Positions 5,401 to 50,600 of a DNA stretch of 64,000 nucleotides are shown piece by piece. Under the pieces are notes generated by a model, which was not told where the DNA came from, ran no database searches, and worked only from the letters and a program-made list of their open reading frames with translations. Numbering within the stretch: the first letter of the stretch is position 1; the number at the start of each line of letters is the position of its first letter. Source of the DNA: Paracyclopina nana (taxonomy: Eukaryota; Arthropoda; Copepoda; Cyclopoida; Cyclopettidae); the NCBI GenBank assembly GCA_019096065.1, contig JAGUCH010000008.1, forward strand, positions 67,001-131,000, given 5' to 3'. A program made the position numbers and the translations under genes.

Positions 5401-8400
5401 TGGGTATACACTTTGGTCGCATTGAAGTGTGGGGGGCGCGCATGCGGCGCGCCCCAAAATCACAATAAAGTGAAAAATCTGCTTGCTTACCAGCCATTTT
5501 TCGTTGCATTCACAGTGGGAGTCTAGGAATGTTAAAATGCCCGAATTTGCCGCGTCCGCGCCTTTCACGCGCGACCTCATCAAACCCTCGCGCTTGGAAT
5601 TGCGCAAAACTCGGACCTTGTGGATTTTCGCCAATTCGAGGCCGTCAGCGGCTGCAAAAAAAGGGCAAATTTAGCGTGCTTTTACTTTATGAACTGAAGC
5701 AGCTCGCGGATTTAGATCGAAAGGTCGATACGAGTGATTTGATGTGAAATGGATGAATTTTCCTTAAAATGATCGAAATGGGTCAAAATTGATCAAAATA
5801 TGTTAAAATTGATCTAAATGGGCCAAAATTGATCTAAATGGGCCAAAATTGATCAAAATGGGCCAAAATTGACCAAAATGGGCCAAAATTGATCAAAATG
5901 GGCCAAAATTGATCAAAATGGGCCAAAATTGATCAAAATATGCTAAAATTGATCTAAATGGGCCAAAATTGATCTAAATGGGCCAAAATTGATCTAAATG
6001 GGCCAAAATTGATCAAAATGGGCCAAAATTGATCAAAATGGGCCAAAATTGTTCGAATTGGTTCAAAATTGATCAAAATGGGTCAAAATTGATCAAAGCT
6101 TCTTGCAAATAATCAAAGTTGGTCAACAATATGATTGAGATTGATGTAGATCAACATTGATCGAAATGGGCCCAAATTGATGAAAATTGGTCAAATGATC
6201 AAGATTTCTTGTGAAGATTAAAAATGATGAAAATAGGCCAAAAATGAACGGAATTGCACAAAAATGATCAAAATTGTTAACAAACATCTAACTTGGACCA
6301 AATGATACAAATTGGTCAACGTAATTAAAATTGCTTTACAGGAAAAAAAGATCAAAATTGATCAAAATTGCTTAAAATGGTCCAAAGTTGTTAATAATGA
6401 TTTAAAATTGCCAAAATCTGTCAAAAATGATCAAAACTGGTCAAAAATGAATAAAATCGATTGAAATAATCACAATTGGTCAAAAAATGATCAAAAAATG
6501 ATCAAAATAGGTCAAAATGTTCAATATAGGTCAATAATGATGTAAACTGGTCATGATAAATGATCTAATTAAACCAAAATGATCTAAATTTGTCATAAAT
6601 GATCTAAATTAGTCAAAAAGGATCTTAATTAGTCAAAAGGGATCTAAATCATTAAAAATGATCTAAATTAGTCATAAATAATATAAATTAATCAAAGTGA
6701 TCTAAATTAGCCAAAACTGATCTAAATAAGTCAAAAATGATCTAAATAAGTCAAAAATGATCTAAATTAGTCAAAATGATCTAAATTAGTCAAAATGATC
6801 TAAATTAGTCAAAATGATCTAAATTATTCATAAATGATCTAAACTTTTCATAAATGATCTAAATTACTCAAAAATGATCTAAATTACTCAGAATGATCAA
6901 AATTGCTTAAAATGAATTTTTATTTCCAGTTTTTGACCTTGCTTCACTTTTGGCGGAATTTGAGCCATATGTTGTTGTTCGACTTTGAAAATATACTTAC
7001 GGTCATCACTGAAGTCATCCACAAGGATGATTTCTCTTATTAAATGCTCAGGGCTGCGATTCAACACGCTGAAAAATAGAAGAAGGAAACTTTTATTAGG
7101 CGCCACAGTGGATTATTTCCCATTTCGTCCCCCATATATACTAAAGTATCGGAATGAGATTTTCCCCCATTTTTTATTATGGCACAGTGGATTATTTTGC
7201 TTAAATTTGCATTTTTGTCAACTTGGCGGTGGGTTCACTACATACGGCAGTGAAGTGAAAATCCCTGTATTTTGCTGAGATTTGGCGTGCGCTCGCATCT
7301 ACCGTACAGTAATGACTTTTTTTCATCACATGTGAAGAAATAATATCCATTATTGTACAGTTGGCAACTTGAGAGTTCCTTCTTCAATTTAAAAAAAGAC
7401 TTGACCGGGAATCGAGCCCAGGTCTTCTGTGTGAAAGGTCTGCACTATGCCAATGTACTATCAGTACACACTTACTACCTCAATTATTCTGGCATATATT
7501 ATTAGTAACGTCTTAATTAAATTGATATTTTTTTAGCATTTAAAAGTACTTTTGAGACTTGCGACCTCACAAAGCTGGCAAAAATATCAATTCTGTCCTA
7601 ATTACTCGCCCATTAAAGTTAAAGTTGCACGAAAAAGCGCCATCTATTGAAATGACACCGCATTTAGCATTGCATATGATTGTTGAGATCTTGTGTCACT
7701 AACCTGTAGATGCGCGCGCGCGCGATTGACCGCAAAGTTTTACCTGCAAACGAGCTATCGTTTTTAAGGCCAATTTAATTGATAAATTAATGAATTTTCA
7801 ATATTTAACAGTACTATTGGGACTTTTAACCCTCACGAAGCTGACAAAAATGTCAATACTGTCCTGATGACTCGTCCATATAGGGTTTTTCGCTCATTCG
7901 TAGTAAAATTCCAGATCACTCGTGGCTTCGCCACTCGATGATCTTTCATTTGACTACTCATGAGCGAAAAACCCTATATGGACTCGTCATCAGGACAGTA
8001 TTGTTACATTTTTCCCAAAAAGGCACGGTGGATAATTTTGCAATGAGACTCGCATTGAAAAAAAAGATTCCTATTTGGAAAACCAAGATTTTTCAAGCTC
8101 ACAGTGGATTATTTTGTATTTTGTCGCCCATTTCTGTTCAATTTTTTTTTTTTTCTTTTTGTATTATGAATTGGGGATTTTTTTCATTTTCTCCCCAATA
8201 AAAACAAATATGAAATGACTTTTTTGGCCTTTTTCCATATTTAGGCACTGAGGATTATTTTGCATTTGTGATTTTTTTGTGAAAATCAAGATTTTGGTAC
8301 ACTGTTGATTTATTTTATTTATTTTTCCCCGTCAATTTTACCCAAGTGTATACTAATAAAATGAAAGACAGCGAAGAATGGAAAGTTTTGAAGAATGACC

Positions 8401-49399: not shown

Positions 49400-50600
49400 C
49401 ATTTTCATGCACCTTGAGAGTTGTTTTGGTTTTTTTGGCTCAGGCGGAATTTGTTGCCTTTTTTTACTGATATCTTCTAGGGTTGGTCAACTTGAGTGAT
49501 TTTGACAATTTATACACATTCCTTTATGCTATATTTGAAGTAGCCTTGAAAAAAGTCTCGAAATGCTCCTTAAAGTGTGCACAGTGGAATTTTTGGCCGT
49601 TTTATCGCGCATACTTTGGAGTAGAAGCCCTAAGTGATTTTCTAGGCTGTCAGCTGATTTGAGTGACCTATTCTTGGTCACTTTCTTTGCCCTCAAGACA
49701 AAGATGCACTCACCACAGTGGATTATTTTGCCACTTAAAAGTGCGCATAAGAATATTTTCAAGAAAAAAGTCCATAATTTTGAAATGTGACTTTTTGCAA
49801 TTTTTATACAATTAATTTGCCACCTTTTTCTACATGGAATTATTTCATAGATGTCAAAATTAAGAAAATCACGAATTCTCATTAATAGAAAGATCATAAC
49901 AAGTAGCGCCACTGGGCGGGGCTTAAATGTTGATTTCGCGGATTCCAGCCTTTTTTTGGCGCCAAATAATCAAGCAAATGTCATTTTCCATAATTAAAAC
50001 TGGTAAAACTTGGCTTTTTTACCATGGCTTATAAAAATGACTTTTCCCTGACCAAATTGCAATTTTTCACTCTTCCCAGATTGATTGGGAAAGCAAAAAA
50101 AAAAAAAATTGCAGTTTTTGCCACTTTTTGTGTGTGCTGAATGGAAGCAATTCGCAGCTACCAGACAAATTCCGATAACACACATTGGGTAACACCCCAA
50201 AGAAAAGCAAAGAACCGCCAAACATCAATAAGAATTTAATCAACAGAACCATGGAAAACGTTTCCGCGTGCTATAATTCAGTTCCCCAAAAATAGATATT
50301 CTCCCCCAATTTTTCAATGGAACAAAGCTCCAAGTCGTTGACTAAGCACACTAAAATTATTTAAATTTAATGCATCTTAAGACCAAAAAAAAATTAAGGC
50401 CTAACCGTTTTACTATAATAAAATAAAATGTCATAGTGTATAAAACATTATTGTTGCTAGAGAGTGGAAATCAAAAAATATATAATGGACCAACTGCCAA
50501 GTAATGCCAAAGAAATATGGGTAAGGTCAGCTGCATGCTCTTGAGCTTTATGACTTCCTTCTCCACATGGAAGCCATTTCCAATCAGAAGAAGAAATGTG
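49400..50600. other. AT-rich intergenic DNA with two CACAGTGG motifs
   Basis: CACAGTGGAATTTTTGG at 49580, with CGCGCATACTTT at 49606; CACAGTGGATTATTTTG at 49714, with GTGCGCATAA at 49741. No supported gene. Confidence 0.5.

What the first reader, a model, noticed from the sequence alone, without database searches (positions are those of the whole stretch)
7104..49730. A dispersed 14-mer, AATAATCCACTGTG, often paired with GCGCATACT
By eye I count 13 exact copies of AATAATCCACTGTG (either strand), 4 of the CACAGTGGACTATT form and about 13 weaker variants. All lie in introns or intergenic DNA: 7104, 7183, 8100, 8757, 25060, 42034-44529, 47586, 47730, 49580, 49714 and others. A given 14-mer is expected far less than once in 128 kb of both-strand sequence. 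Many copies have a second block, GCGCATACT, on the ATTATTTTG side at 0-25 bp. The DNA around and between copies is not visibly repeated, unlike an ordinary transposon or satellite. A bipartite recognition site for a DNA-binding protein, or the minimal ends of a mobile element family, would both fit.
Basis: seen in the sequence. Interest (0 to 1): 0.85.

Follow-up and report, generated by a model that had tools for sequence, protein, structure and literature searches.

The report
Two-box DNA motif near chromosome ends
A small arthropod genome carries hundreds of scattered copies of a strict two-part DNA signal, mostly toward chromosome ends and often as facing pairs, which looks like the docking site of an unidentified DNA-binding protein rather than a mobile element.

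Summary
The 14-mer is real: 13 exact and 14 near copies (up to 2 mismatches) in the window against 0.63 expected, and 279 exact copies in the 92 Mb genome against 0 for the reversed pattern. It is box 1 of a composite site: CACAGTGGATTATTT, then CGCGCAT(A). In the 100 of 133 genome matches listed, CGCAT starts 18-20 or 26-30 bp from box 1, never 21-25 or 31-44; three rows at 15 bp lie in one tandem array. Many sites form facing pairs, most often 129-148 bp long. Of 274 mapped exact copies, 214 lie in the outer 15% of chromosomes and 118 in the first 1.9 Mb of the window's contig; weaker copies also occur inside C9. Transposon hallmarks are lacking: no clear target-site duplication, no shared interior or flanks, 59 of 61 spacers different, arms varying independently. 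Best reading: binding sites of an unidentified two-module, probably multi-zinc-finger protein, comparable to REST or the C. elegans pairing-centre proteins. Binding and function (chromosome-end organisation, insulation or gene control) are inferred, not tested.

The parts
7104..7140 (+). site: box 1 CACAGTGGATTATT plus weak box 2
7183..7196 (+). box 1, no clear box 2
8024..8060 (+). variant site CACGGTGGATAATT with box 2 at the long distance
8100..8136 (+). site, long distance
8246..8259 (+). weak box 1 variant
8734..8770 (-). site, long distance
20830..20866 (-). variant site, long distance
21213..21357 (.). degenerate facing pair, 145 bp (CACAGTGAATTATT and CACCCAGGATTATT, both with short-distance box 2)
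25060..25095 (+). site CACAGTGGACTATT with exact GCGCATACT, long distance
26707..26727 (.). two box 1 variants overlapping head to head (AAAAATCCACAGTGGACTAAA)
42034..42047 (-). box 1, no clear box 2
42121..42134 (-). variant box 1
42167..42203 (-). site, long distance
42310..42323 (-). box 1, no clear box 2
42428..42584 (.). facing pair, 157 bp, left arm short distance
42744..42847 (.). facing pair, 104 bp, both arms long distance
43060..43228 (.). box 1 at 43060 and a facing pair 43169-43228 (60 bp)
43740..43772 (-). variant site CACAGTGGAGCATT with box 2, long distance
44024..44058 (+). site CACAGTGGACTATT with exact GCGCATACT, long distance
44441..44528 (.). facing pair, 88 bp, both arms long distance
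47586..47743 (.). facing pair, 158 bp, both arms short distance
49580..49615 (+). variant site CACAGTGGAATTTT with exact GCGCATACT, long distance
49714..49750 (+). site, box 2 (GCGCATA) at the far edge of the long class (CGCAT at 30 bp)

Best explanation
Each copy is a composite recognition site, roughly 25-35 bp long, for one sequence-specific DNA-binding protein (or tight complex) with two DNA-reading modules. One module reads CACAGTGGATTATTT. The other reads CGCGCAT(A) and can dock either almost directly after box 1 or about 8-9 bp further in, with the connecting DNA unread. A multi-zinc-finger protein with a flexible stretch between finger blocks would do this. Two sites often face each other 130-150 bp apart (outer edge to outer edge), so two bound proteins may flank about one nucleosome length of DNA; sites also occur singly, head-to-head overlapping, or in tandem arrays. 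The concentration of exact copies toward chromosome ends, above all in the first 1.9 Mb of one chromosome, suggests a role in chromosome-arm organisation (anchoring, insulation or homologue pairing) more than control of single genes. Shown: sequence, two spacings, paired arrangement, map of exact copies, lack of clear transposon hallmarks, box 1 fixed in two arrays. Inferred: that a protein binds, its type, the nucleosome idea and the function.
For: Genome counts 279 exact and 703 with up to 1 mismatch against 0 and 15 for the reversed pattern. CGCAT starts 18-20 bp (21 rows) or 26-29 bp (40 rows) from box 1 in all 61 listed rows of contigs C1-C7, with 59 different spacers; 30 listed C8 rows outside one array agree (8 at 19-20, 22 at 27-30); no listed row lies at 21-25 or 31-44 although the pattern allowed it (33 of 133 rows were not listed). 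Positional information is low between and outside the two boxes. Arms of a pair vary independently: box 1 positions 9-14, identity 0.806 against 0.798 shuffled; loosely classed spacings LS 21, LL 18, SS 11; outer base GG 20, CC 19, mixed 27 of 79. In two tandem arrays box 1 is identical in all inner units while the rest is not: L031, 7 units, 294/294 against 820/1085; L034, 3 units, 42/42 against 152/183. 214 of 274 mapped exact copies lie within 15% of a chromosome end (82 expected if uniform) and 118 lie in the first 1.86 Mb of C8; the ACTATT form, counted apart, has 31 of 79 in the first 1.57 Mb of C8. REST half-sites also occur with the gap expanded by 7-11 bp (PMC2573930, passages); C. 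elegans pairing-centre zinc-finger proteins bind 12-base motifs enriched at chromosome ends (PMC9071541, passages).
Against: No protein, occupancy or expression data exist here. 53 of 192 strong box 1 copies outside four array loci were not classed at either distance (a few of these do show CGCAT at a class distance), so box 1 alone may suffice or another partner may exist. Only one genome was held, so conservation between species is untested. Array evidence is mixed: box 1 is hardly or not better kept than the rest in L059 (3 units, 40/42 against 298/333) and L030 (2 units, 12/14 against 97/116), and the end copies of L031 and L034 have changes in box 1; the unit cut itself asks for most of box 1. 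Genome-wide, 1-mismatch copies (424) outnumber exact ones (279). The end map rests on exact copies: on C9, CACAGTGGA words were found in both interior samples (2 in each 10 kb, one with CGCGCAT at the long distance) and in none of seven 10-kb samples nearer the ends. Clustering in chromosome arms is also common for repeats.
Confidence: 0.72

Rival explanations
1. Old miniature inverted-repeat transposons (MITEs): the box 1 copies are terminal inverted repeats of about 140-bp non-autonomous elements whose interiors have decayed.
For: Facing inverted pairs with a length peak at 129-148 bp (34 of 82 pairs), dispersed mostly toward chromosome ends, TIR-like 14-bp ends. A faint excess of flank matches at 5 bp (0.291 against 0.244, reached by 11 of 1000 shuffles over 79 pairs; 75 of 1000 without two array loci) and at 3 bp (38 and 10 of 1000). 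Genome-wide, 1-mismatch copies (424) outnumber exact ones (279).
Against: Only 1 of 79 pairs has a perfect 5-bp duplication and 2 have 4 or more of 5. Of 75 interiors, long matches occur only within two local clusters; matches between loci are 16-44 bp, and several just cover box 2. Flanks: 109 matches between different places, the longest 63 bp at 76% identity. Box 1-box 2 spacer different in 59 of 61 sites and of two lengths, which copying one template would not give. Tandem direct arrays without facing partners.
Confidence: 0.1
2. RSS/Transib-like recombination signals: CACAGTG is a heptamer, the GCGCATACT block acts as a nonamer, and spacers of 11-12 or 19-21 bp play the part of the 12/23 spacers.
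For: Box 1 begins with CACAGTG, the RSS heptamer consensus as I recall it (the passage read names CACAAAG as commonest in Ig loci and CAC as the key part). Two discrete spacer classes with unread spacer. Transib ends are reported with 20-22 bp or 12/23 spacers (PMC8355894, passages). The faint 5-bp flank excess is at the length reported for RAG-like and Transib duplications (PMC7204232, passages).
Against: No 12/23-type rule (LS 21, LL 18, SS 11). The second block is GC-rich, not A-rich. Seven more bases after the heptamer are strongly conserved. 1 perfect 5-bp duplication of 79. The RAG1 profile found nothing, but no control genome rang and Transib transposases are distant from it (recalled).
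Confidence: 0.05
3. Ordinary gene-regulatory sites: binding sites of a transcription factor that controls genes which happen to lie in chromosome arms.
For: Composite sites with flexible spacing are typical of transcription factors. A facing pair lies about 0.8 kb upstream of what looks like the first coding exon of a short-chain dehydrogenase gene (47586-47743; exon about 46383-46775, minus strand). Weaker copies inside C9 fit a genome-wide regulator.
Against: C2 has no mapped exact copy beyond 2.41 of its 17.5 Mb, and C8 has 3 of 121 beyond 1.86 Mb, an odd map for one regulon. Window clusters (7.1-8.8 and 42.0-44.5 kb) are not at evident promoters, although gene ends are unknown.
Confidence: 0.25
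4. Hairpin RNA or cruciform-forming element: the inverted pair folds.
For: Boxes 1 and 2 of the two arms are complementary in many pairs; one pair (L027 3282) carries the same unusual box 1 in both arms.
Against: Overall the arms show no compensatory changes (0.806 against 0.798 shuffled for positions 9-14; spacer 0.304 against 0.297); 21 of 50 pairs with both arms classed differ in spacing class, and direct tandem or single copies are common.
Confidence: 0.03

Closest known systems
C. elegans meiotic pairing-centre motifs bound by ZIM-1/2/3 and HIM-8 (PMC9071541, passages read)
   Same: Short motif dispersed in the genome and concentrated near chromosome ends, strongest at one end of one chromosome.
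   Different: Arthropod, not nematode; longer two-box site with two spacings and facing pairs; exact copies on all nine large contigs and at both ends of some; weaker copies inside C9; no protein or meiotic data.
RE1 sites of the zinc-finger repressor REST (PMC2573930, passages read)
   Same: Two half-sites read by one protein, with a class in which the gap is expanded by 7-11 bp; solitary half-sites also occur.
   Different: Sequence unrelated. Here the expanded class is the majority (62 of 91 listed rows outside one array), while altered spacing is 5% in REST; here sites pair up and exact copies cluster toward chromosome ends.
V(D)J RSS and Transib/RAG-like transposon ends (PMC8355894 and PMC7204232, passages read)
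   Same: CAC start (CACAGTG), unread spacer of two lengths, facing pairs.
   Different: No clear 5-bp duplication, no spacer rule, no A-rich nonamer, no shared element interior.
Arthropod insulator and architectural zinc-finger sites such as CTCF, Su(Hw) or Pita (recalled, no call)
   Same: Long motifs for multi-finger proteins scattered in non-coding DNA.
   Different: Those are recalled as genome-wide; exact copies of this one are concentrated toward chromosome ends, and its sequence matches none that I recall.

Membership tests
MITE / TIR transposon | target-site duplication next to the inverted repeats | tested here: not met
   1 perfect 5-bp case of 79 pairs; faint excess of matches at 5 bp (11 of 1000 shuffles reach it; 75 of 1000 without two array loci) and at 3 bp
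MITE / TIR transposon | copies share internal sequence | tested here: not met
   75 interiors: long matches only inside two local clusters; between loci 16-44 bp, A+T 0.56-0.93
MITE / TIR transposon | terminal inverted repeats on both sides | tested here: inconclusive
   many facing pairs, but also single and direct tandem copies
Transib / RAG-like element | CAC-starting end with 5-bp TSD | tested here: not met
   CAC start present; only 1 perfect 5-bp case of 79, with a faint statistical excess
Transib / RAG-like element | RAG1-like transposase in the genome | tested here: inconclusive
   PF12940: 0 matches at E 1, but no control genome rang either
V(D)J-type RSS | pairing of one short-spacer with one long-spacer site | tested here: not met
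   LS 21, LL 18, SS 11 among 50 pairs with both arms classed, of 82 (two of the LL are artefacts of array L031)
Pairing-centre motif system | motif concentrated near chromosome ends | tested here: met
   exact copies: 214 of 274 within 15% of an end; 118 in 1.86 Mb of C8; second form agrees. Caveat: on C9, CACAGTGGA words were in the two interior samples and not in seven nearer the ends
Pairing-centre motif system | one end of each chromosome, with a small set of motifs shared out among chromosomes | tested here: inconclusive
   C2 and C8 are nearly one-sided, C1, C5 and C6 two-sided; a second motif occurs on C9 and elsewhere but could not be mapped genome-wide
Pairing-centre motif system | bound by C2H2 zinc-finger proteins in meiotic prophase and needed for pairing | not testable with these tools
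   needs protein identification and cytology
Composite site of a multi-zinc-finger protein (REST-like) | two boxes with a limited set of spacings and free spacer sequence | tested here: met
Composite site of a multi-zinc-finger protein (REST-like) | a zinc-finger protein that binds it | not testable with these tools
   no binding data

The most novel reading that the evidence does not exclude
The sites are cis-acting chromosome-end identity marks in an arthropod: a convergent counterpart of nematode pairing centres, in which dedicated zinc-finger proteins read long composite motifs (this one, and a second unrelated dispersed motif, TAGATGARCRSSRCAT, seen on C9, in this window and elsewhere) to anchor or pair chromosome ends.
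Probability: 0.12. Interest if true: 0.9.

Novelty: new variant of a known kind. Interest (0 to 1): 0.65.

Why it matters
Dispersed motifs that mark chromosome ends are known in detail from nematode pairing centres. An arthropod with hundreds of copies of a strict two-box site, its exact copies concentrated toward chromosome ends, offers a direct test of whether such marking systems have arisen elsewhere, and gives a clean bait sequence for finding the protein. Even if the sites turn out to be ordinary regulatory or insulator sites, the two discrete spacings and the roughly 140-bp facing pairs are an unusually sharp natural data set on how a two-module protein may read DNA.

Tried and rejected
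MITE or other TIR element: disfavoured on duplication, interior, flank and spacer tests, with the faint 3- and 5-bp flank excess told above. A TGCA duplication (TGCACAGTGG...CCACTGTGCA) was considered; only 20 of 79 pairs have G outside both arms, 19 have C outside both and 27 are mixed, so it fails as a general feature. Hairpin: no overall covariation. RSS/12-23 rule: not met. Nematode origin: SL1 RNA and cuticle-collagen searches empty, though no control rang in either; the chitin-binding cuticle domain gave 80 matches, so I take it for an arthropod. Nine large contigs and degenerate TTAGG-type repeats at four of the contig starts read made me think of a mite; this is a guess. Literature: the strings AATAATCCACTGTG, CACAGTGGATTATT and CACAGTGGACTATT were searched in the PMC library; one paper, on a bacterial toxin-antitoxin system, holds the third string, seen in the listing only. 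A search for mite assemblies returned 12 listed papers of 1,861, none on mites by title. Control repeat AACAGCTGACTGTTGC: only 3 copies in the genome, all in the window, so it was no use as a control map. In one search three L031 'pairs' are false (direct tandem units read as pairs); they were dropped but remain in the 82 used for spacing classes and lengths.
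Full report
What is there. The 14-mer AATAATCCACTGTG occurs 13 times exactly in the window, and 27 times with up to two mismatches, against 0.63 expected in shuffles. In the window's own genome (92 Mb, nine large contigs and one small) it occurs 279 times exactly and 703 times with up to one mismatch; the same pattern read backwards occurs 0 and 15 times.

The composite site. In 227 strong copies in fetched DNA (chosen for 0-2 mismatches, so partly fixed by choice), positions 0-13 of CACAGTGGATTATT are 88-100% one base, position 14 is T in 73%, and then information drops until the second box. 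The start of CGCA falls at 19-20 bp (42 counts) or 27-29 bp (80 counts), with 0 at 21-24 and 3 at 25-26. Outside four array loci, 192 copies divide into 53 with the short distance, 86 with the long distance and 53 not classed, at 5 or more of 9 matching bases; a few of the last do show CGCAT at a class distance. A genome scan that allowed any gap of 0-30 bp after box 1 found 133 matches, of which 100 were listed: 61 on C1-C7 (21 at 18-20 bp, 40 at 26-29 bp, 59 different spacers), 30 on C8 outside one array (8 at 19-20, 22 at 27-30; one box 1 counts twice), and 9 rows in that array (6 in the long class, 3 at 15 bp; in two of those three the same box 1 also has a long-class match). None of the 100 lay at 21-25 or 31-44 bp. 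The two classes differ by 8-9 bp.

Arrangement. Copies often stand as facing inverted pairs. In 82 neighbouring pairs (three of them artefacts of one direct array) the total length peaks at 129-148 bp, with 34 of 82. Among neighbouring exact copies under 400 bp apart, 31 face inward, 43 point the same way and 13 point outward; 21 of the 31 inward ones have start-to-start distances of 115-147 bp. Clusters of several elements separated by some tens of bases occur, for example C8:55.2-55.7 kb and C4:7.768 Mb. Direct tandem arrays with 67-80 bp units also exist. In two of them box 1 is identical in all inner units while the rest is not (L031, 7 units, 294/294 against 820/1085 compared letters; L034, 3 units, 42/42 against 152/183). 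In two others it is hardly better kept than the rest (L059, 3 units, 40/42 against 298/333; L030, 2 units, 12/14 against 97/116), and the end copies of L031 and L034 have changes in box 1. The unit cut used a pattern that itself asks for most of box 1.

Why not a mobile element. Flank matches of 2-10 bp hardly exceed shuffles. The largest departures are at 5 bp (0.291 against 0.244 over 79 pairs, reached by 11 of 1000 shuffles; 75 of 1000 without two array loci) and at 3 bp (38 and 10 of 1000), with one perfect 5-bp case in 79 and two with 4 or more of 5. I read this as noise or base preference next to the motif, but 5 bp is the length that RAG-like elements would give. Of 75 interiors, long matches link only copies inside local clusters (L030, L059); the 17 matches between loci are 16-44 bp, and several just cover box 2. 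Among 156 flanks, 109 matches link different places, the longest 63 bp at 76% identity and the others at most 42 bp. The two arms of a pair are independent in box 1 variants, spacer sequence, spacing class and outer base. A family copied from one template would share spacers; here 59 of 61 differ. By contrast, other over-represented words of the window (AACAGCTGAC and partly AGATGGCGCT) show shared flanks by eye, as ordinary repeats do. Against this, genome-wide 1-mismatch copies (424) outnumber exact ones (279), as decay would also give.

Where it is. Of 274 mapped exact copies, 214 lie within 15% of a chromosome end (82 expected if uniform). C8, the window's contig, holds 121, of which 118 lie in its first 1.86 Mb; C2 has 19, all in the first 2.41 of 17.5 Mb. 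The CACAGTGGACTATT form, counted separately, gives 79 copies with 31 in the first 1.57 Mb of C8. The five unmapped exact copies come after C8:6.27 Mb in listing order. This map is of exact copies. On C9, two interior 10-kb samples (L074, L077) each hold two CACAGTGGA words, one of them with CGCGCAT at the long distance, while seven samples nearer the ends hold none. Weaker sites may therefore be spread more evenly than exact ones.

What it most likely is. The REST repressor gives a close mechanical parallel: its half-sites are also found with the gap shortened or expanded by 7-11 bp, and half-sites also occur alone (PMC2573930, passages). The best parallel for the map is the set of 12-base motifs read by the zinc-finger proteins ZIM-1/2/3 and HIM-8 at the pairing-centre ends of C. 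elegans chromosomes (PMC9071541, passages). I commit to a two-module, probably multi-zinc-finger protein (0.72), with a function at the level of chromosome ends as the leading but unproven idea. Gene regulation in the arms remains a fair rival (0.25, overlapping with the main reading, since both need a binding protein).

The RSS resemblance. Box 1 starts with CACAGTG, the RSS heptamer consensus as I recall it, and the spacer lengths (11-12 and 19-21 bp to GCGCATACT) recall RSS and Transib ends (PMC8355894, passages; that passage names CACAAAG as the commonest heptamer in Ig loci). But pairs do not prefer short with long, the second box is not A-rich, perfect 5-bp duplications such as those reported for RAG-like elements (PMC7204232, passages) are all but absent, and a RAG1 profile found nothing (inconclusive, as no control rang). 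I treat the resemblance as coincidence, at 0.05.

Host. The genome has 80 matches to the chitin-binding cuticle domain and none to nematode cuticle collagen (control silent), so I take it for an arthropod. The species is unknown to me.

A second motif. While sampling C9 as a control I met another dispersed long motif, TAGATGARCRSSRCAT, with flanks that look unrelated except in one tandem array (L069). By a matrix trained on 27 copies from these same loci it scores 8 in 10 kb at C9:6.10 Mb, 6 at C9:5.90 Mb, 5 at C9:6.04 Mb, 7 at C9:0.10 Mb (partly tandem), 6 mostly weaker ones at C9:3.0 Mb, 3 at C9:1.5 Mb, 2 at C9:0.3 Mb, 0 at C9:0.5 and 6.2 Mb, and 5 in this window; the reversed window gives 2 and three Markov sequences 0, 1 and 2. 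If several such motifs divide the chromosomes among them, the pairing-centre comparison gains weight; its copies inside C9 argue against a strict end preference.

Noticed in passing
window 12106, 12279, 17685, 22811, 45063; L073, L075, L072, L069, L074, L023, L024, L022: Second dispersed composite motif, consensus about GTAGATGAACRSSRCATNAA, with flanks that look unrelated; frequent in several sampled C9 stretches.
   Followed up: partly
L073 805-8755 (C9:6.10-6.11 Mb): Seven copies in 10 kb of AAACTGAAAT, several inside a near-palindromic word (roughly TCAGTnnnCAAAACTGAAAT), in otherwise different DNA.
   Followed up: no
L074 5241 (C9 centre) and L077 1847: Weaker variants of the main motif in chromosome interior, CACAGTGGATCAAA with CGCGCAT and CACAGTGGACTCAC with CGCGCGT.
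   Followed up: no
window 3213, 7645, 20511, 28773, 50635: AGATGGCGCT words resembling a CTCF core (recalled); some copies share longer flanks and belong to repeats.
   Followed up: no
window 13.3-14.4 kb, 20.1-20.5 kb, 50.7-50.9 kb: A repeat containing AACAGCTGAC; the 16-mer AACAGCTGACTGTTGC occurs only 3 times in the genome, all in this window.
   Followed up: partly
window about 43380-43450: A tRNA-like stretch by eye (B-box-like GGCGTTCGAATCC), not called by ARAGORN or Rfam; possibly a tRNA-derived SINE inside the densest motif cluster.
   Followed up: no
L010, L013, L014, L015 (contig starts): Contig starts are degenerate CCTAA/TTAGG-type telomere-like arrays; C1 starts with a TGGCC-rich array.
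   Followed up: no
window 23359-24498, 34890-35689, 57444-59872 and others: Many minisatellites in 64 kb (63 overlapping rows from Tandem Repeats Finder).
   Followed up: no
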